A DNA stretch of 64,000 bases, from NCBI GenBank assembly GCA_019096065.1, contig JAGUCH010000001.1:15128001-15192000 (forward strand). Direction: 5' to 3'. Shown here in pieces: positions 13,009-26,647 of this stretch. The notes below the pieces were generated by a model, which saw only the letters and a list, made by a program, of their open reading frames with translations, did no database searches and was not told the origin of the DNA. Numbering within the stretch: position 1 is the stretch's first letter; each line of letters begins with the position of its first letter. Source of the DNA: Paracyclopina nana. Lineage: Eukaryota; Arthropoda; Copepoda; Cyclopoida; Cyclopettidae. The position numbers were made by a program, and so were the translations under genes.

Positions 13009-14288
13009 TAGAAATTTGACAAAAACTTGATGAAAAGTTTCTTTCGAAACGAGTTTTTTATTATTGTAAGCGTAACACGAAACGTACACGAAATTCAATG
13101 AAAAAACGCGTTTTTGGAAATTTGATAAAAACTTGATAACTTTTCATCTTATCATAAATCAAAGAAACTCAATGAAAACGCATTTTTTGGCTGTGTGAAA
13201 CTCAATGTGAAACTTGATTGAAAAGAGCTAAAAAGGAGATAATTTAAAAAATAGACTTAAACCAAATTTGTTACAAATTCGATAAGTTGACAGAGATATT
13301 TATTGTCACAAATCTTGTAGATTACAAGTTCATCTTAGAAAAGGAAAGTACAACAGATTTCATTTGTTCCGGGCTGGTTCCAAGCAACGTGCGTACCATA
13401 TGAAAATTCTTCGCGGTCTTAGGCCGGTTCTTGAGCCGGGTCATGAGCCGGTTCTTGAGCCGGGTCTTGAGCCAGGGCTTTGGCTGGATCTTGGGCCGGA
13501 TCTTGGGCCGGGTCTTGGGTTGAGTCTTTGGCCGGGTCTTTGGCCGGGTCTTCTGCCGGGTCTTTGGCCGGGTCTTGGGCCGAATCTTGGGCCGGATCTT
13601 GGGCCGGATCTTGGGCCGGATCTTTGGCCGGGGCTTGGATTGAGTCTTTGGCCAGGTCTTGGGCTGGGTCTTGGGCCGGGTCTTGGGCCAGATATTGGGC
13701 CGAGTCTTGGCTCGAGTCTTGGGCCTGGACTTGGGCCAGTTCCTGGGGCTGGGTCTTGGGCCGGGTCTTGGTCTTGGTCTTGGGCAATGCCTTGAGCATT
13801 CAACTTGAAACTTTTTTAGCACAACAGGCTAGGTGCGTGCCACGAGGAATTTGCGAAATGCAAGTTCAATTGCAGCTGACTGAATTTTGTTGATGACTGG
13901 ATTTTTGATGAATTTACACAAAATGTATTCAAAAAAGCCAAAATTACATTTTGTACGATATTTTTTGCACTAGTAACTCTGTTTCTAACAAATCAAGTTT
14001 TTTATCAAGTTTCTTAACACATCTAATTTTTAATGAATTTCTGGAAACAAGTTTCTCCAAACTTGACAGAAATTCGTCCAATATCCATCATGTTTTGAAC
14101 AAGTTTCATAAACAACTTTAAAATTTATTTGTATTGAATTTTATTAGATTTGAAATTTACGAGTTTGAAGAAACACGAAAAAAACTTTTTTGAAACTTGT
14201 TTTTATCAAATTTGTTTTAGAAACTTGATAAAAAAGTGATAATGTGGAATTTGATCGCAGGAACTTTTCGAGAAAAGGGTTCGCTGGG
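12977..14288. mobile_element. TIR DNA element, CCCAGCG...CGCTGGG ends, 2-bp TSD AG
   Basis: Inverted ends CCCAGCGAACCCTTTT, flanked by AG on both sides (12975-12976, 14289-14290), 1312 bp. Both flanks of the interior are packed with degenerate AACTTGATAAAA/GAAATTTGA words. The centre is a 12-bp minisatellite (about 13430-13790). No transposase is seen. It interrupts the Thr-rich secreted protein gene. Confidence 0.7.
13430..13790. repeat. 12-bp minisatellite (TCTTGGGCCGGG-like)
   Basis: About 30 imperfect copies of a dodecamer, TCTTGGGCCGGG and variants such as TCTTTGGCCGGG. Because the unit is a multiple of 3 and lacks stops, several frames stay open on both strands (AGSW, PKTR/PGPR and AQDP repeats). 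I treat these as by-products of the repeat, not genes. Confidence 0.85.
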
Positions 14289-14373: not shown

Positions 14374-14717
14374 TCAGGCTATAATGATGTTGTCTTGAGC
14401 AAAATTTTTAGGCTCTTTCAGATGCTTCGTTAGGAAATGCTTTTTTATCGATGATCCTACGGAAGAATTGTTGCACAAGACACACAGGTTTGTGTTGGTA
14501 TTGGGATTCTTGTACACATGCGACTCGATGAATTTATCCAGCCTCGACTTGAACTTTTCGTCCCTGGTCATGTGAGTCATGAGATGCTCCCGCTGGTTAT
14601 AGAGGTCTCGGCAGGTTAATCCACAAATAAGGCACTGGTAACGACCTTCCTCCGTACGAGACGACATGGACGTAATGTAAGCATGAATTTCACAAGCCAA
14701 ATTGAGTTGCTCGTCAC
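14374..14717 (-). CDS. Alternative last exon A17, most distal, two C2H2 fingers
   Basis: Acceptor TTTTCCAG, Gly junction (GDEQLNLACEIH). Finger 1 is CLICGLTCRDLYNQREHLMTH. Finger 2 is irregular (CVLCNNSSVGSSIKKHFLTKH), with 31 residues between the fingers, unlike the short linkers elsewhere. It is therefore the most divergent intact member. It sits just upstream of the TIR element ending at 14288. Confidence 0.8.
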
Positions 14718-17700
14718 CTGGAAAACAAACAAATTACAAAATTGTGGCCACGGCTACTAAAATGAATGAGGAAAACTACAACACTAGTGACAACGTGGAG
14801 TGAAAGCAGGCTCACTTACTTTATTAACCAGCAAATTTGTCATTTAGGGCATCTCCAAACGGTATTCGATGCTTGCAATACATGTGTGTCTTTAAGTAAT
14901 CTGTATTGTTGAATTTGGCCCCACAATATTCGCAGGTGAACGTTTGTCCCAGTCGAGCTGATAAATGAACGTTTCGATAATGCCTGTTGGCTGAGGAGAA
15001 GCAAGAGAATACACGACCACATTCATTACATAAGCATTTACTTCCACTCAGCTTAGTGATTACAACATCTGCAATATAAATCAAAAATTGATCATCTGGG
15101 GTCAACTTTGGCTTTCAGCATGGCTTTTGACAGCTTGTGCACAGATCTCAAATGGTCATCCAGGTACATTTTCACCGCATAGTATTTATTGCAAATCTGA
15201 CATCGATATCTGCGTTCACTTTTGTCAGTTGCATGGACCAATACGAAATGGCGTCTCGCGCTGAACATGGAGCCAAGTGTCTTGCCACAGCTCAAGCATC
15301 GCACTGATCCATCATCATAGGGCACAAGTCCCACCGTGGGGTCGTCTGCAGATTCATACACATCTAGGAAATGTTTATGATTTTACTCAATTTATTCCTT
15401 TATTGACTGTCCAGCTGGAGACATTATCATAGAGATATAACTAGCTTAAGAATACATCTTAAGGAGCTACACGATTACGCAACATTGTTTGAGTGATTTT
15501 GTGAGCAACCCTCAAGTGGTCGTTAAGGTAGATTTCGACTGTGAACCTTTTGCTGCAAATCTGGCATCGATATCTGCGCTCACTTTTGTCGGTTGCATGG
15601 ACCAATACGAAATGGCGTCTCGCACTGAACATGGAGCCAAGTGTCTTGCCACAGCTCAAGCATCGCACTGATCCATCAGCATAGGGCACAAGCCCCACCG
15701 AGGGGTCGTCTTCAGCCTCATAAACATCTAAGAAATGTATATTGTTATGCTAAAATTATTCCTTTATTGACTTTGCAGTTTGATAGCAATATATGTATTT
15801 CTAGTATAATCCTATGGAGCTACACGGTTACGCAACATTGCTTGAGTGATTTTATGAGCAACTCTCAGGTGGTCGTTAAGATAGATTTCCACTGAGAACG
15901 TTTTGCCGCAAATCTGGCACTTGAATCGTTTGTCTGACTTGTTCACTTCATGGACCAATCTGTAGTGCCTACGAGCAACAGACAGCGAGCATAAAGTCTT
16001 GCCACATCTTAAGCATCCAGCGGAGCCATCTTCATACGGAACAAGACCATAGAGTGGATTATCGATAGAATCTGAAAGAGGGGGACAATCGGTCACAATC
16101 ATGGCTGGAAATCAGGCCTTTTCTGTCCCAATGAAAAGCAAACATCTTTTCATGGCATGACTCTAGCTCGCATCATGGCTTTCGAAATTCGATGCACTGT
16201 TCTCATGTGGTTATCGAGGTACATTTCAAATTGAAACCTTTTGCGGCACACTTGGCACTGAAATTGAAATTGCCTCTCTGGAACCTTGTTCTTTTCATGA
16301 ACGAGCATGTAATGTCGGCGGCCACTGTTCATTGAACTCAGGACTTTTTCACAGCTCAAGCACTGCACACTTCCATCTTGATAAGGAACAAGACCAACTA
16401 GCGAATTTGAGCTGCAATCTAAGAGAGTACGCATACATTATTGAAGAGCTGAAACACTGACAAAAGCTATCCTATGGCATGACTCTAGCACGCAACATGG
16501 CTTTCGAAATCTGATGAATTTTCCGCATGTGGTTGTCCAAGTACATTTCAAAGGGGAACCTCTTGTTGCACACTTGGCATTCTAATTGCCTGCTAGCAGC
16601 TTTTCTCTTTTGATGGATACGGTGGTAATGCTGATTGCCGTGGTTAAAGTCGCTCATGACTTTGCCGCAGATCAAGCATCGCACACTTCCATCATCGTTG
16701 GGAACAAGGCCACCAATCGCACTTGAACTGCAATCTAAATAGACTACCAATTAACAAGTGTTTTTATATTGTAAGGCACAGGGAATGATCCTTATTGATT
16801 TTATGGCTCGCATCATCATGGCTTTCGAGATTCGATGGACCACCCTCAAGTGGTTGTCACGATAAATTTAAAATGGAAACTTTTTGCTGCACATTTGGCA
16901 TTTGACGGTATCTGTTATTTGGTGGCTCTCGTGAAGCAGCATTTAGTGCCGGTGTCTACTTTTCATGCTGCTTTTGACCTCATATACTAAATACTGCCCA
17001 CAATCGCGCACTATCGCGCACGAACGCGCAAATGCTAAATACTGCCCACAAATGATAACTAATTCATATTTTTGAGTGTGAGGCACCTGAGTTAACCCCA
17101 ACCTGTAGATTAAGCAAGGATCTACAAAATCCGTTTTTTGGCTGTCCTGAAACGCCCACAGTAGTACTTTTTTTCAGCTAAGAGCAGACTCAGCATTCTT
17201 GACCCTTTGCTGACCTCTGCTGAAAATTTGAGGCAGCTGAGTCAATTTTAAGGGTCGATTTCAGGAGTATCAACAAAACTGCTAAGTACTGCCCATGTAC
17301 TGAAAGTTGACAAGCATAAACTAGAAACTCCTGAAATCGGCCCTTAAAATTTTTTATTTGTTGTTGTTGTTGAAACCTTAAATAAGAGTTACTCTATGTA
17401 TTTTTGACCCTTTTTCATTTTATATCAGTCAATTATCATCTCTGGGCAGTATTTAGATTTAGCGCATTTGTGCGCGTTTTGATCCATGGGCAGTATTTAG
17501 TATTTGCGCGTTTGTGCATGATTGTGCGCGATAGCGCCCGTTTGTGCGCGATAATGCGCGATTGTGGGCAGTATTTAGTATGGGCCGCTTTTGACTTTGT
17601 CGCTACTCAAGCATCTAACGCTTCCATCAATCACGTTTGAGCAGCAGTCTAAGAGAGATCCAAAAGTTTTCATTAGTAGTGAAATCTAAAGTGATCCAAA

Positions 17701-20700
17701 AAGTTTTATTCAGCATAATAATCAGGGCGCGGCACAACTGGCTCAGGGGGCTTAATTATGTTTTTCATCATGGCTGAAGTGATGCCATGGGTCTGCCTCA
17801 TGTGAGTGTCTCTGGAAATTGCGTTTTTGCATAACACTTTGCATATTTTGCATCTAGCTGGCTGGTTGGGCTGGTGAGCGGAGGCATAATGGCGCTTTCC
17901 GGAATGAGCAGTGGCTAAGGTCTTTCCACATTTGAGGCAAGTGCATTTCCCATCCGGAAGCATTGCCAGGCCCATTTCTTCATCGGTGTCCTCCTCCCAA
18001 GGAACGCCAGAAAACGAGTCTACAATTAAGGCAATATTTAAGCTGAGCCTGGTGCGAACTTTTTGAGCATATCTCGCGTGATGCCATGGCTCTGTCTCAA
18101 ATGGCTATCTCTAGTTTGCTGATTTTTGAACACTTTTTTGCAAACGGAGCAAGGTGCGGGTTGGTTCAACCCATGCACGGATCTGATGTGCCTTTGGCCG
18201 TTGTTCACATTGCTTATCATTTTCCCACATTGGAGGCAGGTTACACGACCGTCCGGATGTTGAGCGAGGCCAGTGTAGTCCTCTTGAGGAAAGATCGCCA
18301 ATCGCCCTGCACAGTGGGAAAACTGCATCAAATCTCGTAAACAATGCTTCAGCTCAATATTGCACGCAACCTTGTATTTTATTAAGTCTACTTCAATTTC
18401 GTGCCCACTTATAAAAATGGTAATTTTCAATCATTATTATTTTTTCTGGTTGGGCAGTCTGACGGCGACTCCGTGATATTGCCTCAAATGAGACTCACCC
18501 TTCATTTTGCAGCGATTTTCAGCAGGTGTCACACTCGACAGGAGAAAAAACCACCAGATTCTCGTCTTCAAGGGAGACCTCGAGGCCTGTGTTGAATTTT
18601 AGGTTTGTTGAATACTTATTGCAGGCAGCTTTCTAAAATACAAATTACATAGCTGCAAGGTATGCCTCAACCTCTTTTAACTGCAATTTAAAGCTCTCCA
18701 ACTATCAACGTTATTTTCCTTATTCATTGATATAATCAACGCTTGTTACTCTTGGATTGTTTGAAAGATAGGATTTCAGCAGAAGAATTCTTTTTATTGA
18801 GAAATTATCTTTCCGGTTTCTGAGTTTGAATATAATCCGTTTGTAATTTATTCAGCGGCAGGTGGGATGGGGATAAACCCTTCCATTATCATAGTTTCAG
18901 TGACTCCGTGAACTCTCTTCATATGCTCATTTCTTGAAGTACGATTCTTGTATGTTTTGAGGCAAACTCTGCATTCGGCTGGCTTATTGACTTGATGAGC
19001 GGTGGCAAAATGACGTTTTGCAGCACTCGGTGAGGAGAACGTTCGATTGCACTTCAGACAGAGCACTTTGCCCTCGGGCAATATAACAACTCCTGAACCT
19101 TCATCTTGCTCCATAAGGAAATCATCGTCAAACATTGAGCCTAGTGTAGTAGGACAAATATTAAAAATCTAATGGCACAGGCACAAAGTTGTTTTTCAAC
19201 ATCGATTCAGTCACGTCATGAGCTCGCTTTAAATGATCTCTCATTGAAGTTCGATTTTTGTACGTATTGGAGCACAGCCTGCAACGCACTCGCTCAGTGA
19301 CTTGATGCACCGAAACAAAGTGACGCTTGGCATTGCTCATGCTGCTGATTTTAGCGTTGCACTTGAGACAAAGCACTTTTCCATCGGACATTTCAACTAG
19401 ACCCCAGTCCTCTGCAGGTGGCTGCTGATCCTCAACGCAATAGCCTAATGTCAAATAAATATTTATGAAAAACCTCAAGCAACTTGTCATTGTACCTATT
19501 TAATTTCATGAAATGATGATAAAATTGAGTAGCTCAGTTTCTGTGCATTTTTTAAAGGCAATTTCTATCTTGGCTGATATAAAAATAGGCTCCATATTGA
19601 CATAACAATTATCATTTAGAATTGGTAGATTCAAGCGTGGTTTCCACAAGTGCATTCAGTGGTTGGGTGGCCATTTCGGAGTCATTGCCAATTTGTTCAT
19701 GCTCTTTTTTGATTTCAGCTGCTGCCACTAAGTTTTCCGCGTCTTTAATGGACATTCGATGCAATCTATTGACATGCTTGTTCAGGGCAGGCCGATTTTT
19801 GCATGTGGCTTGGCAAATTTTGCACTGGAGAGGCTCGTTCTCTTGGTGAGTTATAGCAAAGTGTCGTTTAGCTGACCTCATAGCATTCAAGACTTTGCCA
19901 CAATGCGTGCATAAAACTTTTCCATCGTCCAGCTTTGTTAATCCACAACCTTTGATGTCGTCTTCATAAAATCCTGAATTGATAATAACTCGTTAATTAC
20001 AATGTTATTTTCTTGAAACTTTATTTTTAAAAATCGCACAACAATTAGTAGAATAACTTGCTCACTGCAGATCTATCTAACAGCAATTCATTCAACATCC
20101 CTTATGGAGAGCCCATGGCTACGATTAATGTGCTTGTTCAGTGACAACCGATTTTTGTAGAGCTTCAAGCAAAGTTTGCACTTTAGTGGTGCATTTTGAA
20201 TGTGTGCCAGGGCGAAATGGCGGCGACCAGTAGAAATGCCACTCAAGATTTTAGAGCAAAGTGAGCATTCGATTCTTCCGTCAGTTAGCCGATTTAACGT
20301 GGCATCAATGTCAGACTCGCTAAGCTCGTTTTTGACGTCAATGGTCTCATCACCGTCCGCATAAAATCCTGCATTGCAATATGGCTTTTATTAGATATGA
20401 AAAGGAACAACAACAACTGCAAAAAAAGTGCGACTAAAACTTTCAAGATTTTATTCTTATGACTCTTTGGCACATTTTTTGGGGTGAGGTCTATTTAAAT
20501 GATCCTCGTAGTTTCGAAGTTTAACCCATGTGATAATTTTTTGCAGATACACCATGAGAATTGTTTAAATGTGATGCTCTAGCTGCCTTATGCTTGAACG
20601 TTTTCTGGCAAATTGGACACTTCACTGGCTCGTGATACATGTGGACGTTGCGGTAATGCTGGATTCCAATTGCCTTCGAGCTCAAAATCTTACCACACTT

Positions 20701-23282
20701 AAAACATGTCACTCGTCCGTCTAGCATTTGCCCGAGCAAAGCGTTCCCAATGTCATTGCCTTAAAAAAGGGTATCATTTAGTCGATTATCACTACGGTCA
20801 ACCGACGGAGCTTCAATGAAGCTATTCATATATCTAGCTGAAATGCCATGAATGGTCTTCATGTGGACCTTCAACCCATGGTTGTTCTTTAGGACTACTT
20901 TGCAAATTCTACAAAGGGCTGGCTCATTGGGCAAATGAGCAGATCTATAGTGAGATCTTCCGGAGGATACACCGCTGAGTATTTTGCCGCACTTGAGGCA
21001 AGCTACCTTGCCACCATCCAAGGCCATGAATCCAGGGCTCTTGTCTTCATCATCAAGATGTTGTGTATTGAGCTCGAGCCCTAAGGTTCAACAAAACAGT
21101 TTATTAGTCATCTATAGATGGTGGCACTTTCAGAGCATTTTTAGCCATTTTCGCGGTCAGCCCATGCTTCTGGAGCAAATGAACATAGCGGGAGGCCTTG
21201 TTCTTGTAGACCCTTTTGCAGAGTGTGCATTTGTAAGCTTGATTGGGCATATGTAATGTTCTGTAGTGTCTGTAACCATTTGCAACATTTCCAATGTGAG
21301 CTCCACACTTGAGGCAGGTCACAGATCCATCCGGATTCCGGACAAGCTCAAATGATCCATCTTCCTCCATGGAAGCCTCTCCATACAAAAAACCTGCGAC
21401 CAAAACCAGTGACTTTGTTTAGTTTTGAGGTTTCTTGAGTGGGCCAATCCAGTTTACGACTGCGATCAACTCGCATACATTTGTTATGGCTATCTCAATG
21501 GTAGAAAGTTCACATGCAATATTTGCATTTTGAGGCTGCACATGCACAAGTTATTTCTGTGTTGGCAATGTGCACTGCTTGACTTGTAAAAGAAAATGAA
21601 ACATTTCATCAAGAGTTCAAGAGAGGCTCAAATCCTCCCTTGAGCAAAGCTTGGCAAAACCATGAATAGCGAGCCTATGGCTGTAGAATGTGCGTAGGCA
21701 ATAATTAAACCGTTGAAGTTTTGCATTCATGAGGACAATTCTGTAGTGGTGATATGCACTACCAGTAAGTGGCAAAATGTGGCAAATCAAGCAACTTAAC
21801 TTATGCGATTGTCTGCTTTGGCAAAACCCTCTCCCTCGGCTTGTGTTTTAACAATGTATTTTTTTCATTCTTAAAGGACGAGTTCAGGAACAACCATTGA
21901 ATCTTCATTTTCTCAGTAGTATATTCTGCAACATCTTGGCACTAATTCTGTGAATTTGCTTCACATGCTGGCTGAGAGTACGCTAGTTTTTCATAGTTTT
22001 ATGGCAAATCTGACACATTTTGGTCACAGCAATGTGAGTATTGCAATAATGCAAGGACAAAGGCTTGATTGACCAATGATCAATAACACCTGAGACATGT
22101 AATCATCCCGGTATTGCAGATTGGGAGCCAGACTGGCCAAAAAAGTGGATAGGCATCATCATATTTTCAATGTGGTTAATAGGTGTTCCCGAGGATACTT
22201 AGCGTTAGCCGTGCTATGTTAGCAAATTGTTGTTCCAAGAATTTTTTCACAGCAAAGATACATCTCTTTTGAGACTCGTCAGTCATGTGATTCTCTTTGA
22301 AATGAGTACAAGCTTGAATTGGTCTGCTCAATTTTCGGCTGCATTTCAGGTAAATCAATGTGCCATCATCCAAACCATACAGTCCTAGCTCCATTTGGCT
22401 GTTGTCTACTGATCCTATGGCTATCTAATTCTCTTCTAATGAATGCAACCATTTACCTCAGCAGCTCTTTCAGCTGTTAGTATGAGCAACATCCTACCAG
22501 CTCTAGCACATAGTTGTACTTGTGAAGCAATATAAAAAAATGATCCCTACCTTTGCCTTCTTCTCCAGACTCAGACGGACCAGCCTCCTCATAATACTCG
22601 TCGTAATTATCCATTTGCTCCTGCTCCAAATCAACCACAGGGTCGGGATCTTGTTTGATCTCCGTCTTCTTTGAACTGCTCTTGATGGCATCTCCAGCAT
22701 TCTTGCTCATTTTTAGACGTTTTGTGGGTGGTGGATTTGCTGAAGATGTGGAAGCTTTGGGAGTTGAGCTGAAGGTATGAGTTGCAGATGACCCAACATT
22801 GGAAGTGCTGCCATCTTGGTTTTGCGTCAAGCCCTTGATCATGAGGTCTTGCGCTACACTCAAAAATGAGTCGAGATCTTCTTGGGCCACAGACACCTGG
22901 CCAAGGTACATAAACTCTAGGATATTTTTTATGTCTTCATGGCGGACGCCTCGAAGATAGATAGCAGGGTTTTGGACGGTTGAAAGCCTCTTTATAATGT
23001 GTCTGAAAGGGAAAGCAGAAAAATTCATATTCAGGAATTGCTGCAAAACAAGTGACACATGTTGTGCTATTGTTGATAAGTCAGTTCCAAATCAGATTCT
23101 TACCTGAAATGTGGGGAACAGGCTCCCAAAATCAGCTTATGACACCGGATTTCGGATTCCTCTGTGATGAGGGTGACATCGAAGAAATCTTCATCATCTC
23201 GAAGTTCGTTAAATGCAGATGACAAATTTGATGTGAAGTCATTCCACTTCAAGCAGTACTTTTCGCTCTCTACGGAGCCCAT
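14374..23282 (-). CDS. lola-like BTB zinc-finger gene with alternative 3' exons
   Basis: A transcription-factor locus. A common 5' coding part (23282-23104 plus 23002-22551) encodes the BTB domain and linker and ends in splice phase 1. Downstream lie 17 exons, each with its own AG acceptor, a length of 3n+2, and its own stop: 22405-22176, 21393-21104, 21080-20761, 20759-20521, 20368-20088, 19973-19612, 19444-19161, 19140-18848, 18306-18038, 18019-17706, 16734-16472, 16418-16150, 16071-15812, 15727-15459, 15363-15092, 15068-14824 and 14717-14374. All but the first encode a pair of C2H2 fingers. Since each contains a stop and all share the acceptor phase, they must be mutually exclusive last exons, as in Drosophila lola (established architecture). 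Several relic exons are interspersed. Orthology to lola itself is inferred from architecture, not proven. Confidence 0.85.
14824..15068 (-). CDS. Alternative last exon A16, two C2H2 fingers
   Basis: Acceptor ATATTGCAG, Asp junction (DVVITKLSGSK). Fingers CNECGRVFSCFSSANRHYRNVH and CEYCGAKFNNTDYLKTHMYCKH. The stop lies in GGTTAATAAAG, so the stop codon overlaps a poly(A) hexamer. Confidence 0.83.
15092..15363 (-). CDS. Alternative last exon A15, two C2H2 fingers
   Basis: Asp junction (DVYESADDPTVG). Fingers CLSCGKTLGSMFSARRHFVLVH and CQICNKYYAVKMYLDDHLRSVH. The first finger and linker are almost identical in DNA to A14, which implies recent duplication or gene conversion. Confidence 0.85.
15459..15727 (-). 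CDS. Alternative last exon A14, two C2H2 fingers
   Basis: Asp junction (DVYEAEDDPSVG). Fingers CLSCGKTLGSMFSARRHFVLVH (identical to A15) and CQICSKRFTVEIYLNDHLRVAH (nearly A13). It is thus a mosaic of its two neighbours. Two AATAAA motifs follow the stop, near 15392 and 15401. Confidence 0.85.
15812..16071 (-). CDS. Alternative last exon A13, two C2H2 fingers
   Basis: Acceptor CTTTCAG, Asp junction (DSIDNPLYG). Fingers CLRCGKTLCSLSVARRHYRLVH and CQICGKTFSVEIYLNDHLRVAH, ending RNRVAP. A minus-strand AATAAA near 15762 follows the stop. Confidence 0.85.
16150..16418 (-). CDS. Alternative last exon A12, two C2H2 fingers
   Basis: Phase 1 junction, Asp (DCSSNSLVG). Fingers CLSCEKVLSSMNSGRRHYMLVH and CQVCRKRFQFEMYLDNHMRTVH, ending MRARVMP. 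It is a close paralogue of A11. Confidence 0.85.
16472..16734 (-). CDS. Alternative last exon A11, two C2H2 fingers
   Basis: Phase 1 junction gives Asp (DCSSSAIGG). Fingers CLICGKVMSDFNHGNQHYHRIH and CQVCNKRFPFEMYLDNHMRKIH, ending LRARVMP. It is most similar to A12 and to the broken copy next to it. Confidence 0.85.
16797..17648 (-). pseudogene. Relic zinc-finger exon split by a transposon
   Basis: The array-type acceptor and Asp junction (DCCSNVIDGSVRCLSS) are present at 17648. The exon is then interrupted by the element at 16979-17586 and resumes toward 16797. Relative to A12, one finger-1 Cys is Ser, and TAA codons replace a Tyr in finger 1 and a residue in finger 2 (CQMCSKKFPF-stop). It can no longer encode a finger pair. 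Confidence 0.8.
16979..17586. mobile_element. TIR element with about 9-bp TSD (GCTTTTGAC)
   Basis: Terminal inverted repeats containing ATACTAAATACTGCCCAC, followed by CGCGCA/TGCGCG-rich arms, about 608 bp. GCTTTTGAC occurs at 16970-16978 and again at 17587-17595. The 8-9-bp duplication suggests a hAT- or Mutator-type element. It has no coding capacity. Confidence 0.75.
17706..18019 (-). CDS. Alternative last exon A10, two C2H2 fingers
   Basis: Acceptor TAATTGTAG, phase 1 (Asp). Acidic leader (WEEDTDEEM), fingers CLKCGKTLATAHSGKRHYASAH and CKICKVLCKNAISRDTHMRQTH, and a Pro-rich tail (KPPEPVVPRPDYYAE). Confidence 0.85.
18038..18306 (-). CDS. Alternative last exon A9, two C2H2 fingers
   Basis: Acceptor CTGTGCAG, phase 1 (GRLAIFPQED). 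Fingers CLQCGKMISNVNNGQRHIRSVH and CSVCKKVFKNQQTRDSHLRQSH. The gap to A10 is 18 bp. The frame is open upstream of the acceptor, but that part lacks array features. Confidence 0.83.
18440..18600 (-). pseudogene. Relic second-finger fragment
   Basis: On the minus strand CDTC, a stop, then KSLQN, a frameshift, and ESHLRQYHGV match the finger-2 region of A9 (CSVCKKVF...SHLRQSHGI). The rest is unrecognisable. It is a decayed duplicate between A8 and A9. Confidence 0.55.
18848..19140 (-). CDS. Alternative last exon A8, two C2H2 fingers
   Basis: Acceptor TACACTAG, phase 1 (GSMFDDD). Fingers CLKCNRTFSSPSAAKRHFATAH and CRVCLKTYKNRTSRNEHMKRVH. The tail is FIPIPPAAE. Confidence 0.85.
19161..19444 (-). 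CDS. Alternative last exon A7, two C2H2 fingers
   Basis: Acceptor GACATTAG, phase 1 (GYCVED). Fingers CLKCNAKISSMSNAKRHFVSVH and CRLCSNTYKNRTSMRDHLKRAH. Only 20 bp separate its stop from the start of A8. It closely resembles A8 in the YKNRTS stretch, which points to a local duplication. Confidence 0.85.
19612..19973 (-). CDS. Alternative last exon A6, two C2H2 fingers plus long tail
   Basis: Acceptor TCAATTCAG, phase 1 (GFYEDD, like A5). Fingers CTHCGKVLNAMRSAKRHFAITH and CKICQATCKNRPALNKHVNRLH, then a charged 50-residue tail ending LESTNSK. This is the longest exon of the set. Its leader and finger spacing make A5 its nearest relative. Confidence 0.85.
20088..20368 (-). CDS. Alternative last exon A5, two C2H2 fingers
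   Basis: Acceptor ATTGCAG, phase 1 (Gly: GFYADG...). It has no internal Met before the fingers, so simple ORF calling misses it. Fingers CSLCSKILSGISTGRRHFALAH and CKLCLKLYKNRLSLNKHINRSH. It ends SIRDVE-stop. An AATAAA on the minus strand lies near 20020. Confidence 0.82.
20521..20759 (-). CDS. Alternative last exon A4, two C2H2 fingers
   Basis: Acceptor CCTTTTTTAAG abuts the stop of A3. Phase 1 (Gly), short leader NDIGNALLGQ. Fingers CFKCGKILSSKAIGIQHYRNVH and CPICQKTFKHKAARASHLNNSH. This is the shortest complete exon of the array (78 residues after the junction). Confidence 0.82.
20761..21080 (-). CDS. Alternative last exon A3, two C2H2 fingers
   Basis: Acceptor GAACCTTAG, phase 1 (Gly). 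Fingers CLKCGKILSGVSSGRSHYRSAH and CRICKVVLKNNHGLKVHMKTIH. The final codons (LNDTLF, stop) also form the branch site and pyrimidine tract of exon A4, and the last A of TAA is the A of A4's AG acceptor. Confidence 0.85.
21104..21393 (-). CDS. Alternative last exon A2, two C2H2 fingers
   Basis: Acceptor GGTCGCAG, phase 1 (Gly). Fingers CLKCGAHIGNVANGYRHYRTLH and CTLCKRVYKNKASRYVHLLQKH, both C-x2-C-x12-H-x4-H. The stop codon lies in GACTAATAAAC, which combines the TAA, an AATAAA poly(A) hexamer and a CTAAT branch-point-like motif for the next acceptor. Confidence 0.85.
21600..21830 (-). pseudogene. Relic zinc-finger exon fragment
   Basis: LICHILPLTGSAYHHYRIV on the minus strand resembles finger 1 of A3/A5 (CGKILSG-x-S-x-GR-x-HYR) with one Cys lost. 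The downstream half shows no second finger. It sits between A1 and A2. Confidence 0.4.
21890..22135 (-). pseudogene. Relic zinc-finger exon with stops
   Basis: The minus strand reads KMCQICHKTMKN, stop, RTLSQHVKQIHRISAKML. This is the finger-2 pattern CxxC-x12-HxxxxH with the array's typical following residues (ISAKM), but with a stop in the finger and stops in the upstream part. It is a decayed copy. Confidence 0.6.
22176..22405 (-). CDS. Alternative last exon A1, diverged zinc finger
   Basis: The acceptor TCAGTAG precedes 22405, and the phase matches the array (G+AC, Asp). The pattern G-x-DDGT-x-YLKCSRKL...HFKENH keeps the layout of finger 1, but the first Cys is Tyr, and the second finger is unrecognisable (CIFAVKKFLEQQ...). 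The frame is nevertheless intact to a stop at 22176. It is either a decaying exon or one with a new, non-finger C-terminus. Confidence 0.5.
22551..23282 (-). CDS. BTB/POZ common exons of the lola-like gene
   Basis: Exon 1 (23282-23104) begins MGSVESEKYCLKWNDFTSN, the typical start of arthropod BTB-ZF proteins (CLKWN). The sequence continues through DVTL, CHKLILGACSPHFR, IYLRGVRHEDI and LEFMYLGQVSV, all hallmark BTB strands and helices. Exon 2 (23002-22551) ends the domain near residue 115. It then carries a Ser/Thr-rich linker, a basic PTKRLKM motif that could be a nuclear localisation signal, an acidic EQEQMDNYDEYYEEAG stretch and the donor GGCAAAG|GTAGGG. BTB domains dimerise. This part would be present in every isoform (about 211 aa). 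Confidence 0.9.
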
Positions 23283-24827
23283 TTTGATTCAGTTGATTTG
23301 GCGAGATCGCCAAAGATGTTAAGGATGTCGGAGGATTCAGCCAATGTTAGAATGTCCAGACTCTGAGGTCGGCGACTCGGCGTCGATTTCAGCAATAACT
23401 GACATGAAACTAGAGTTGATTAGGCCAGAAACTTGTAAATTGTATAATTTAGTGCCAGCAACAGTCAAATTTGTGCTTGATGTTCGAGAGAAGCATACAA
23501 CTCTGGAAACACTTTAAAGAAAGAGCCCTTTCGTCTAGATGAGTAAAAGAAAGAACCCATTATATTTAAACTATTCTGGTGGTCTTAAAAAAAGCTGACA
23601 ATGCTATAAAAATACTAAAAAAATATTAAATTGATGCAAAACACACCTAAATCAATAAAGAGTAAATAGATTTCTATGTCATATAAAATCTGAGTTAATG
23701 AACTTTTCATTTTACTTAGCACGATTATTATTGACTACTCAATCATCACTTCTTAGGTGACGGTCATCACCCTTAAGTGAGTTAAGTCATAACATTGTAG
23801 AATGATTGTCCTTTGAATGCCGCTGTGCGGACAGCTTATGGCTAAAGAGTTTCGCAGATATGAGGAATAGACGGGGAAAATTCAGATTTAGTACTTTTTG
23901 CCAAATTGTCGTCTGTTAATTTCGTGTCTACGTAGCGGTAGCGTGAGCCGATCGATCTCGATGACGTAAATTCTTGTCACCAAAAAGAAAAAACGAAGCA
24001 GAGGAAAAGCGGCAGAATTTAGATGTCAACAGCCTCAATTTGGACTGCCAAAAGATTTGGATTTGGCCGATGCATCAGCTTCCATTTTGAATTGCCTGAT
24101 GACTTGGAATTGGATAGTTGTGGATTTGGCCCTTGCAACACCCTCAATTTGGACTACCAACACACTTGGATTCGGCCGGAAAAGAGCCCAGAGCCTGAAA
24201 TTGGGCAAAGACTGGATAACTAGCCAATAATGGGTGTGGAGAAGAGCCTGAATCTACGTTTTGAGGCTGCGCAGAATCCAAAAAGAAGCAAAGGTGACAA
24301 ATAGTACTTTACTAATTACCTAAAAAATAATCAATGTTTCATTTTTTTCAGCCGCTACAAAACAGCGAAAATGGAAGGCCTCTACTTTAGAAGGTCTGGA
24401 GTGACCTTATGGCCTAAGAATTGTTTTGCGAGCCCAGAGGAGCTTTGTGGAGCTATAGTATATGTTGCCTCTTCATCATCTCTCAATAGGCTGGAGGCTG
24501 CGTCTAATGCGCAAATAAGGGCAGATAAGACTCCTATAGGGAGAAAATTGAGAAGGTCTCTTTTTTTAGGGCTAGGAGTGACATAGAAGCATGAAAATAT
24601 TTTTGCCAGCCCATGCACCAATGTAAAGGTAGTCCAAGCTTCCTTTTCATCCTCAGCCTCTCCCGACAGACTTAAATCTGCATCAGATAATCAAGAACTT
24701 ATAGCCACTTCTACGCATGGGATGCTCCGAGTTTTAGTGTAGTAATTCTATATAAGTATGGAGTATGAGTCGCAATGTATTGAGTCAGGGAAAGTCTCCA
24801 TTTTTGCCCGCAGCTTCCATTTTACTC
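23283..24827. other. Upstream region of the BTB gene, no exon seen
   Basis: This should hold the 5' UTR and promoter of the BTB gene. The only visible structure is two imperfect copies of CTCAATTTGGACTRCCAA (24028-24068, 24139-24178). No coding sequence is supported. Confidence 0.45.
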
Positions 24828-25432
24828 CACAGTGTTCCTGGTGAGGTTTTAACCTAAACTTTCTCAACCAACTTTATATTACACATTTTCTGAAAGCTAT
24901 TGATATGGGGATTCCAATGGTGAAAACCATAAAATCCCCTGTCGTAGCTTCCCATAGCATACGAGTTTAAAAAACCGCTAGCGCTCTCATTTTGCAAGGT
25001 AGAGAAAAAAAGCGCTTCAATGACCCCCTCTAAAATCAGAAAATGAACATATTATATTTTATAAACATTTTTGATATCGGACATGGTTTTGAAGTAACTG
25101 CACTATGCTAAATGGCAACCCTTTCTCATCTTCCACATGATGGTAATATCACAAGTAAATTGTAACTCTAGAATTAAGTCCAAATTCAATATTTTGTATA
25201 AAAAATATTATGTTCATTTTTGAATTTAAGAGGGGGTAAATGAAGCACATTTTTTCTCTTCCTTGTAAAATGAGAGTGCAAGGGGTTTTTTAAACTTGTA
25301 TGTTATGGGAAGCTACGACAGGGGATTTTTTGGTTTACACCATTGGAATCCCCCTATCAATAGCTTTCAGAAAATGTATAATTTAAAGTTGGTTGAGACA
25401 GTTTAGGTTAAACCCTTACCAGGAACACTGTG
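24828..25432. mobile_element. Foldback DNA element with ~250-bp arms, 4-bp TSD ACTC
   Basis: Two arms of about 250 bp are inverted copies at roughly 85-90% by eye, beginning CACAGTGTTCCTGGT, with less than 100 bp between them. ACTC flanks both sides (24824-24827, 25433-25436). A 4-bp duplication with CAC ends suits the Chapaev/CMC group (inference). It has no ORF. A transcript would form a long hairpin. Confidence 0.82.
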
Positions 25433-25865
25433 ACTCTTCTTATTAGCCCCTGTCGCTGAATGTAGCCTTCATACTTTTAAAGATTGAAGGCAAAATTGGC
25501 CCCAAAAAATCGAAAAAAAAATCTTTTGAACTGCTCTGCGAACGGCTAATGATAGTGAAATGCAAATCCTACAACTTTGACCACCTCAAACAAAGTAGCA
25601 ACGTTCAACAAGGTCATAGCTGCAACATTTTACTAACGCTTCCTATTTTCTCGTTTCAATGACATTTCAGCTTGCAGTAGCTAGTAATGCTGTGATAAAT
25701 TGCCATGACAATTATGCTACAAGCTTTAGAGGTTAAGTGTTATTCATATCCAATGTATCTTGGACACACATTAGTGGTTTCGAGGGAAATATGGCACAAG
25801 TCTTAATTAATAAAGCTAGGAGATCGGTTTTGACACAGCTTCAAAGTTCACTATCAAGATTTGAA

Positions 25866-26647
25866 TTATTGGATTCCAGTCGGCTTGCCATTACTATTAG
25901 TGTGTATGATGTAGGCTCCGAATCCATAAGCAAAAGTGTTAAAAATGCCAAATACCTAAAAAGAATTGACAATGCTTACATATATGCTTAGCATTTATAA
26001 AATTAAACTTACTCCTGCTGCTATCCTTGCATCACATTTCTTAGATTCACCAGCACAGTATCCAAATCCAGCCAACAAAACAATGAATGCAATAAAATAC
26101 ATAATTGTTGCGCAGATAGTAAATATGTACTCCTGAAAATGGACTTATTTTTACTCTTCTTACTTTTCTGCAGCGCAGTAACTACTTACCAATTTCAGCC
26201 AAGAAAATGGCAATTTTATGGCAATGGCTTCTCCTAATTGAAGCAAATAGAAGAAGCACCAGAGTAATGTAATAATAAAAGAAGTTGAAACCACAAAAAG
26301 AAACCAATGATTATGCCCAACTCCGAAGGTTTCTCCCCTAAAAGTAGCGTATTTTTGAAGTATATAAATTACAAATTGTATCTTGAAACTTACACATATT
26401 CCCGCGCTGGGGATCCACAAGCCATGCAAATAATTCCAAATACCAATTGAACTAATTTTGTGATGCCCGGCAGAGTTTTAAAGTATGCCAAGTTTAAGTT
26501 GATTTCTGTCACAAAAACTCCTGGATTCGGGTCAATTGTGGTGTTGTGGATTGAAGGAGGTGCATGTCCAGATTGCTCAATGCTGACTACTGACCCCACA
26601 GGAACTGATTGACCGTAGCCAGGGGATTTCTCAACTGTTGTCATCAT
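25866..26647 (-). CDS. MARVEL-domain (CMTM-like) four-pass membrane protein
   Basis: Four exons, 26647-26394, 26337-26190, 26132-26013 and 25955-25866, with phases all consistent, 203 aa. After a cytosolic, Pro-rich N-terminus of about 50 residues come four hydrophobic segments: TKLVQLVFGIICMACG, HWFLFVVSTSFIITLLWCFFYLLQ, YIFTICATIMYFIAFIVLLAGFGYC and VFGIFNTFAYGFGAYI. This is the MARVEL layout seen in CMTM/plasmolipin-type proteins involved in membrane apposition and vesicle traffic. The exact paralogue is not resolved. MMTTVEKS at 26647 is the first Met of the open frame. Confidence 0.8.

What the first reader, a model, noticed from the sequence alone, without database searches (positions are those of the whole stretch)
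14374..23282. BTB locus with 17 phase-matched alternative C2H2-pair last exons
Seen: a BTB exon ending in phase 1 is followed by 17 exons. Each is preceded by AG, has a length of exactly 3n+2 to its own stop, and (in 16) encodes two C2H2 fingers. Because every exon contains a stop, only one can be used per transcript. Known: Drosophila lola uses this logic, with trans-splicing in some cases. The compactness here (about 8 kb for 17 exons) and the number of exons make it a strong model for how one promoter yields many DNA-binding specificities.
Basis: partly seen in the sequence, partly recalled or inferred. Interest (0 to 1): 0.8.

Follow-up and report, generated by a model that had tools for sequence, protein, structure and literature searches.

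The report
One protein gene, many swappable zinc-finger ends
An arthropod gene carries one shared protein front end and a row of 16 intact alternative DNA-binding tails, and a partial copy on another chromosome keeps four more tails whose counterparts here have rotted; the layout resembles the fruit fly gene lola, but this looks like a separate branch of that kind.

Summary
Observation confirmed. On the minus strand, a two-exon BTB sequence (phase-1 donor at 22551) is followed by 17 exons of length 3n+2, each with its own stop: 16 encode two C2H2-type fingers, and the seventeenth (22414-22176) is open but has lost its fingers. Alternative last exons are strongly supported by anatomy; no RNA was available.

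New here: (1) A partial copy on another contig (C4) has a near-identical BTB and four intact finger exons. Their counterparts in the window are the decayed units in front of the array: four of four duplicated units decayed, against two of 18 unduplicated ones. A repertoire of 20 tails is thus split between two loci. (2) A second array with the same donor phase lies 2 Mb away, with 25 finger ORFs found. (3) Five intronless BTB plus one-finger-pair genes look like retrocopies of spliced isoforms; four group with this BTB (93/77). (4) Packed exons probably share poly(A) signals; one acceptor abuts the previous stop codon.

The mechanism works like Drosophila lola. The BTB does not group with fly lola (fly sequences recalled), so I file it as a lola-like TTK-type array, not as lola. 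Trans-splicing is untested. The kind is known; the split repertoire is the interesting part.

The parts
23104..23282 (-). BTB exon 1 (ATG at 23282), donor gtaaga
   Evidence: aligned with C4 copy
22551..23002 (-). BTB exon 2 and linker, common part ends in phase 1, donor gtaggg
   Evidence: 12 nonsynonymous and 1 synonymous codon changes in 37 codons
21922..22133 (-). decayed finger exon, counterpart of C4 exon B: acceptor AG lost, frame shifts, premature stop
21609..21847 (-). decayed finger exon, best match C4 exon D (77% over 263 columns); no AG at the matching place
21464..21584 (-). short decayed finger relic, matches C4 exon C (72%) and D (73%)
21104..21393 (-). alternative last exon 1, two fingers
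20761..21080 (-). alternative last exon 2, two fingers; stop codon abuts the acceptor of exon 3
20521..20759 (-). alternative last exon 3, two fingers
20088..20368 (-). alternative last exon 4, two fingers
19612..19973 (-). alternative last exon 5, two fingers
19161..19444 (-). alternative last exon 6, two fingers
18848..19140 (-). alternative last exon 7, two fingers
18450..18600 (-). likely decayed finger relic (identified by eye)
18038..18306 (-). alternative last exon 8, two fingers
17706..18019 (-). alternative last exon 9, two fingers; AlphaFold2 model shows two finger units
16800..17650 (-). decayed finger exon split by a 608-bp insertion (16979-17586) flanked by the 9-bp repeat GCTTTTGAC
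16472..16734 (-). alternative last exon 10, two fingers
16150..16418 (-). alternative last exon 11, two fingers
15812..16071 (-). alternative last exon 12, two fingers
15459..15727 (-). alternative last exon 13, two fingers
15092..15363 (-). alternative last exon 14, two fingers; close duplicate of exon 13
14824..15068 (-). alternative last exon 15, two fingers
14374..14717 (-). alternative last exon 16, two divergent fingers
23567..26255 (-). 5' flank; two stretches (26255-26129 and 25972-25792) shared in order with C4:730811-731098, so the copied block reaches about 3 kb upstream of the ATG

Best explanation
A lola-like transcription-factor locus of an arthropod. One promoter makes a pre-mRNA with a TTK-type BTB part; the common donor at 22551 (phase 1) is joined to one of 16 phase-matched last exons, each giving a different pair of C2H2-type fingers and its own stop. 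Shown: sequence, phase, motifs, splice-site candidates, the C4 copy and its divergence. Inferred: that each acceptor is used; that exons lying 1-100 bases apart share a downstream poly(A) signal, so that acceptor choice rather than poly(A) choice decides within such groups; and history. The history inferred: a block of about 4-5 kb with the BTB, its 5' flank and the first four finger exons was copied between contigs C1 and C4; the four finger exons that thereby existed twice decayed at C1 and stayed intact at C4, while both BTB parts stayed under strong constraint. The ancestral repertoire of at least 20 tails is now divided between two loci.
For: Phase and stops in 16 of 16 exons, blind acceptor tests 18 of 20 and 19 of 20. 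Copy on C4: BTB protein 97%/93% identical in the two pieces, CDS also phase 1 and four finger exons of 3n+2 after AG; DNA collinear over 1,702 columns at 80%. BTB domain dN/dS 0.015, whole common part 0.08, dS 0.44-0.48. Decay of 4 of 4 duplicated units against 2 of 18 others, Fisher p 0.002 (units counted by eye). The duplicated relic A shows 12 nonsynonymous to 1 synonymous changed codons. Finger exons of near pairs have dN/dS 0.22-0.33 in the five pairs where dS could be computed, of seven tried. Helix contact positions differ: 20 distinct sets in 20 exons. Poly(A) hexamers: 10 AATAAA against 1 on the other strand, 1 of 1000 shuffles as high; 8 of 16 exons have one before the next acceptor, 8 do not. 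Five intronless BTB plus finger-pair ORFs, four of them sister to this BTB at 93/77 and with fingers inside this array's group. Fold model of exon 9: two strand-helix finger units, pLDDT around 90 or more there.
Against: No transcript evidence. Acceptors of six of 20 exons were not the top AG of the hand-made score, and in two cases the top AG was out of phase. Of eight intact finger exons given to Pfam (of 16), two reach no zinc-finger cut-off and only two reach that of zf-C2H2 itself; three reach zf-BED and one zf-met instead. Half of the exons lack a poly(A) hexamer before the next acceptor. Ten of 16 exons do have an in-frame ATG before the fingers, so separate starts are not excluded for those. 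The intronless genes are old and diverged (BTB about 32% for the best), their grouping with this locus has middling support and one of five (C4:4.02 Mb) is unplaced. Silent divergence of the BTB copies (0.48) is higher than that of the decayed exon stretch compared (0.14, few sites), which I cannot explain.
Confidence: 0.85

Rival explanations
1. The finger exons, or groups of them, are transcribed from promoters of their own and joined to the BTB leader by trans-splicing, as reported for mod(mdg4) and for the 3'-most exon of lola. Exons on C4 could then also serve the C1 BTB and the reverse.
For: PMC4528330 (section 16 read) says both known fly cases are genes of this very build. The two loci keep near-identical BTB parts and the same donor context.
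Against: All intact exons lie on the same strand as the BTB within 9 kb, so cis-splicing suffices. Six of 16 exons have no ATG of their own (neutral for trans-splicing). No promoter evidence was sought; promoter scanning tools here are bacterial.
Confidence: 0.1
2. The finger exons are separate small genes or a decayed tandem cluster of zinc-finger genes that merely lie behind a BTB gene.
For: Ten of 16 have an in-frame ATG upstream of the fingers.
Against: Phase agreement, six of 16 without ATG, the same order BTB then fingers at three loci, intronless BTB plus finger fusions.
Confidence: 0.03
3. The locus is the direct orthologue of Drosophila lola.
For: Same architecture and similar number of C2H2 tails; lola is one of the oldest TTK-type genes and is found in basal arthropod clades (PMC11426971, section 9 read).
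Against: A second array with 25 finger ORFs in the same genome competes for the title, and its BTB does not group with fly lola either.
Confidence: 0.12

Closest known systems
Drosophila lola (longitudinals lacking)
   Same: TTK-type BTB common part and many alternative C2H2 last exons; 17 of 20 isoforms carry C2H2 fingers according to PMC11426971 (passages).
   Different: The BTB does not group with fly lola (recalled fly sequences); exons here are packed into 7 kb with gaps down to 1 base; part of the repertoire sits on another contig.
Drosophila mod(mdg4)
   Same: Common BTB part with more than 30 alternative ends, many trans-spliced (PMC4528330 section 16).
   Different: mod(mdg4) tails are mostly FLYWCH (PMC11426971), here C2H2-type; here all intact exons are on one strand.
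Drosophila broad, fruitless, tramtrack
   Same: BTB with alternative finger-pair exons (broad: PMC4528330 section 16; the others recalled).
   Different: Far fewer alternative ends (recalled).
Array 2 of the same genome, C1:17199265-17210658
   Same: Phase-1 donor AAAG|gtaggc after a BTB 53% identical; 25 finger ORFs, best AG in phase for 20 of 25.
   Different: Fingers form another group (seven of its exons used); BTB falls in another group.
Function-sharing of duplicates through alternative exons (for example fish mitf genes)
   Same: Duplicate genes divide ancestral isoforms by losing different alternative exons (function-sharing model in PMC5306129, passages; the mitf paper itself seen only as a title in that reference list).
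   Different: Here a multi-exon array of DNA-binding tails is divided, and the copy seems partial from the start.

Membership tests
TTK-type BTB transcription factors | BTB domain | tested here: met
   PF00651 78.3 bits, cut-off 20.5
TTK-type BTB transcription factors | N-terminal FxLRWN motif (PMC11426971) | tested here: met
   YCLKWN at residues 9-14 by reading the translation, with F to Y and R to K; array 2 has FCLRWN
TTK-type BTB transcription factors | Hexamer-forming interface | not tested
   No multimer model was made
lola-like alternative last-exon locus (mechanism) | Common BTB part followed by many phase-matched terminal exons with DNA-binding fingers | tested here: met
lola-like alternative last-exon locus (mechanism) | Transcripts join the common part to one tail each | not testable with these tools
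   No RNA data; intronless BTB plus one-pair genes are indirect support
lola orthologue | BTB groups with lola | tested here: not met
lola orthologue | Shared individual finger exons with fly lola | not tested
   No fly finger sequences were at hand
Trans-spliced BTB loci (mod(mdg4), lola) | Tail exons with promoters of their own or on the other strand | tested here: inconclusive
   All 16 intact tails on the BTB strand; promoters not testable here
C2H2 zinc finger | Two Cys and two His at C2H2 spacing, finger fold | tested here: met
   Motifs in 16 of 16; eight ligands invariant in 15 aligned; two finger units in the model of exon 9. Pfam zf-C2H2 cut-off reached by 2 of 8 exons tested, so the fingers are divergent
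Subfunctionalised duplicates (duplication-degeneration-complementation) | Both copies constrained, complementary losses | tested here: met
   BTB dN/dS 0.015; 4 of 4 duplicated finger exons decayed at C1 and intact at C4, C4 has none of the 16 others in the 20 kb fetched behind it. Expression not tested

The most novel reading that the evidence does not exclude
One transcription factor's menu of at least 20 DNA-binding tails has been divided between two chromosomes: a partial copy carried the BTB and four tails to another contig, and the parent then lost exactly those four tails and kept 16. Each tail would then be an independent, individually needed module whose home locus does not matter as long as a BTB stands in front of it. 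In the boldest form, BTB parts and tails of the two loci may also be mixed by trans-splicing.
Probability: 0.65. Interest if true: 0.65.

Novelty: new member of a known kind. Interest (0 to 1): 0.5.

Why it matters
It is a compact, complete case for asking how one splice donor picks among many acceptors, and how a repertoire of DNA-binding specificities grows and shrinks exon by exon. The split between two loci is a natural experiment: it indicates that single tails are separately dispensable once a second copy exists, and it gives matched pairs of living and dead exons for measuring constraint on fingers, acceptors and poly(A) signals.

Tried and rejected
Rejected: finger exons spliced together into one protein (every exon ends in a stop). 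Rejected: my first acceptor guess at 22427 for the seventeenth exon, replaced by 22414. Discarded: the first BTB tree, because minus-strand loci had been translated on the wrong strand; one search replaces it. Not used: the simulation of chance open frames (its codon count was faulty). The genome-wide finger searches scored only 150 candidates each, so further arrays or copies may exist.

Against my reading and kept in view: two of 20 blind acceptor choices out of phase and one of 20 by the second rule; five of 25 in array 2 out of phase, one of which is probably a spurious ORF; weak Pfam scores of the fingers; open frames of the decayed units at 22414-22176 and 21847-21617.

Full report
Observation. 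The gene lies on the minus strand. Exon 1 (23282-23104) and exon 2 (23002-22551) give a 210-residue BTB and linker and leave one base over (631 nt). Behind the donor come 16 exons that each follow an AG, are 3n+2 long, continue the frame and end in their own stop (16 of 16), with two C2H2-type motifs each. Picking acceptors blind to frame gives the right phase in 18 of 20 and 19 of 20 exons, counting four from the C4 copy, against 0.448 for all AGs in these stretches; tails 3e-5 and 3e-6. Both scoring rules were made by hand.

Proteins. The common part carries a BTB domain (78.3 bits) with YCLKWN where TTK-type domains have FxLRWN (motif from passages of PMC11426971); that paper finds TTK-type BTBs only in arthropods apart from a few plant sequences it ascribes to lateral transfer (section 9), so the host is an arthropod, species unknown. 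The fingers are divergent: of eight intact exons given to Pfam, six reach the cut-off of some zinc-finger family and two none. An AlphaFold2 model of exon 9, one of those two, nevertheless shows two strand-helix finger units at pLDDT near 90. Predicted helix contact residues differ in all 20 exons (20 distinct sets), so the isoforms should differ in DNA preference (inference).

The copy on C4. A search of the genome with the BTB found a near-identical copy at C4:732624 (97% and 93% in its two pieces). It has the same two exons, a phase-1 donor and four finger exons of 3n+2. DNA is collinear from window 23567 to 21922 (80%, 1,702 columns) and 21847 to 21609 (77%), and two stretches farther upstream, to window 26255, match in order (75% and 85%). 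The matching stretch of the window in front of its own array holds only decayed units: ligands lost, acceptors lost, frame shifts and a stop. None of the 16 intact window exons has a counterpart among the 20 kb fetched behind the C4 copy. So four of four duplicated units are dead in the window, against two of 18 others (p 0.002; units counted by eye, and order of the last two relics against C4 exons C and D is not settled). Meanwhile both BTB domains are held tightly (dN/dS 0.015; dS 0.48). The plain reading is partial duplication followed by loss of the redundant tails at the parent locus.

Other relatives in the genome. A second array lies 2 Mb away on the same contig: BTB at C1:17199265, phase-1 donor, 25 finger ORFs with the best AG in phase for 20. 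Five intronless genes on C1, C3, C4, C6 and C9 encode a BTB and one finger pair in one open frame (236 to 293 residues). Four of them form a group sister to this BTB and its C4 copy (93/77) with fingers inside this array's group; the fifth has fingers near exons 10-14 (87/83) but an unplaced BTB. They look like old retrocopies of spliced mRNAs, which would mean that tails of two different types have been joined to the BTB. This is indirect, and DNA-level fusion is not excluded.

How it works. One pre-mRNA, one donor, competing acceptors. Gaps between exons go down to 1 base, and the acceptor of exon 3 directly follows the stop codon of exon 2. AATAAA is in excess on the coding strand between exons (10 against 1; shuffle mean 3.0; 1 of 1000 as high; the insertion left out and 300 bases behind the last exon added), but only 8 of 16 exons have AATAAA or ATTAAA before the next acceptor, and one of these eight, behind exon 9, lies in the inserted repeat. 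So groups of exons probably share one end, and an upstream tail's 3' UTR would run through the next tails. That is inferred.

Comparison. The design is that of lola and mod(mdg4): a common BTB part and many ends (PMC11426971 passages and section 9; PMC4528330 section 16). Division of isoforms between duplicates by loss of different alternative exons is a known model (PMC5306129, passages). What is uncommon here is its application to a many-tailed DNA-binding array; I found no report, which search one open-access library.

Verdict. The split of the repertoire and the retrocopies raise it above a routine lola-like locus.

Noticed in passing
window 16979-17586: 608-bp insertion with inverted terminal arms (93% complementary, 46 nt) and a flanking 9-bp repeat GCTTTTGAC, in a decayed finger exon; its inner part belongs to a repeat with 419 matches in the genome, including tandem runs near C2:219-252 kb.
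   Followed up: partly
window 13415-13785: Tandem array of a 12-bp unit, about 31 copies, just behind the finger array.
   Followed up: no
G000 C7:1576020 and C3:2235004 (L027, L028): Two BTB genes on different contigs with nearly identical BTB domains, a further recent inter-contig copy.
   Followed up: no
window 23282-22551 against C4:732624-733356: Silent divergence of the common part (0.44-0.48) seems high against the decayed exon stretch (0.14 in 37 codons); unexplained.
   Followed up: no
   Followed up: no
window 26000-26445: A 69% match to C3:5473530-5473982, apart from the copied block.
   Followed up: no
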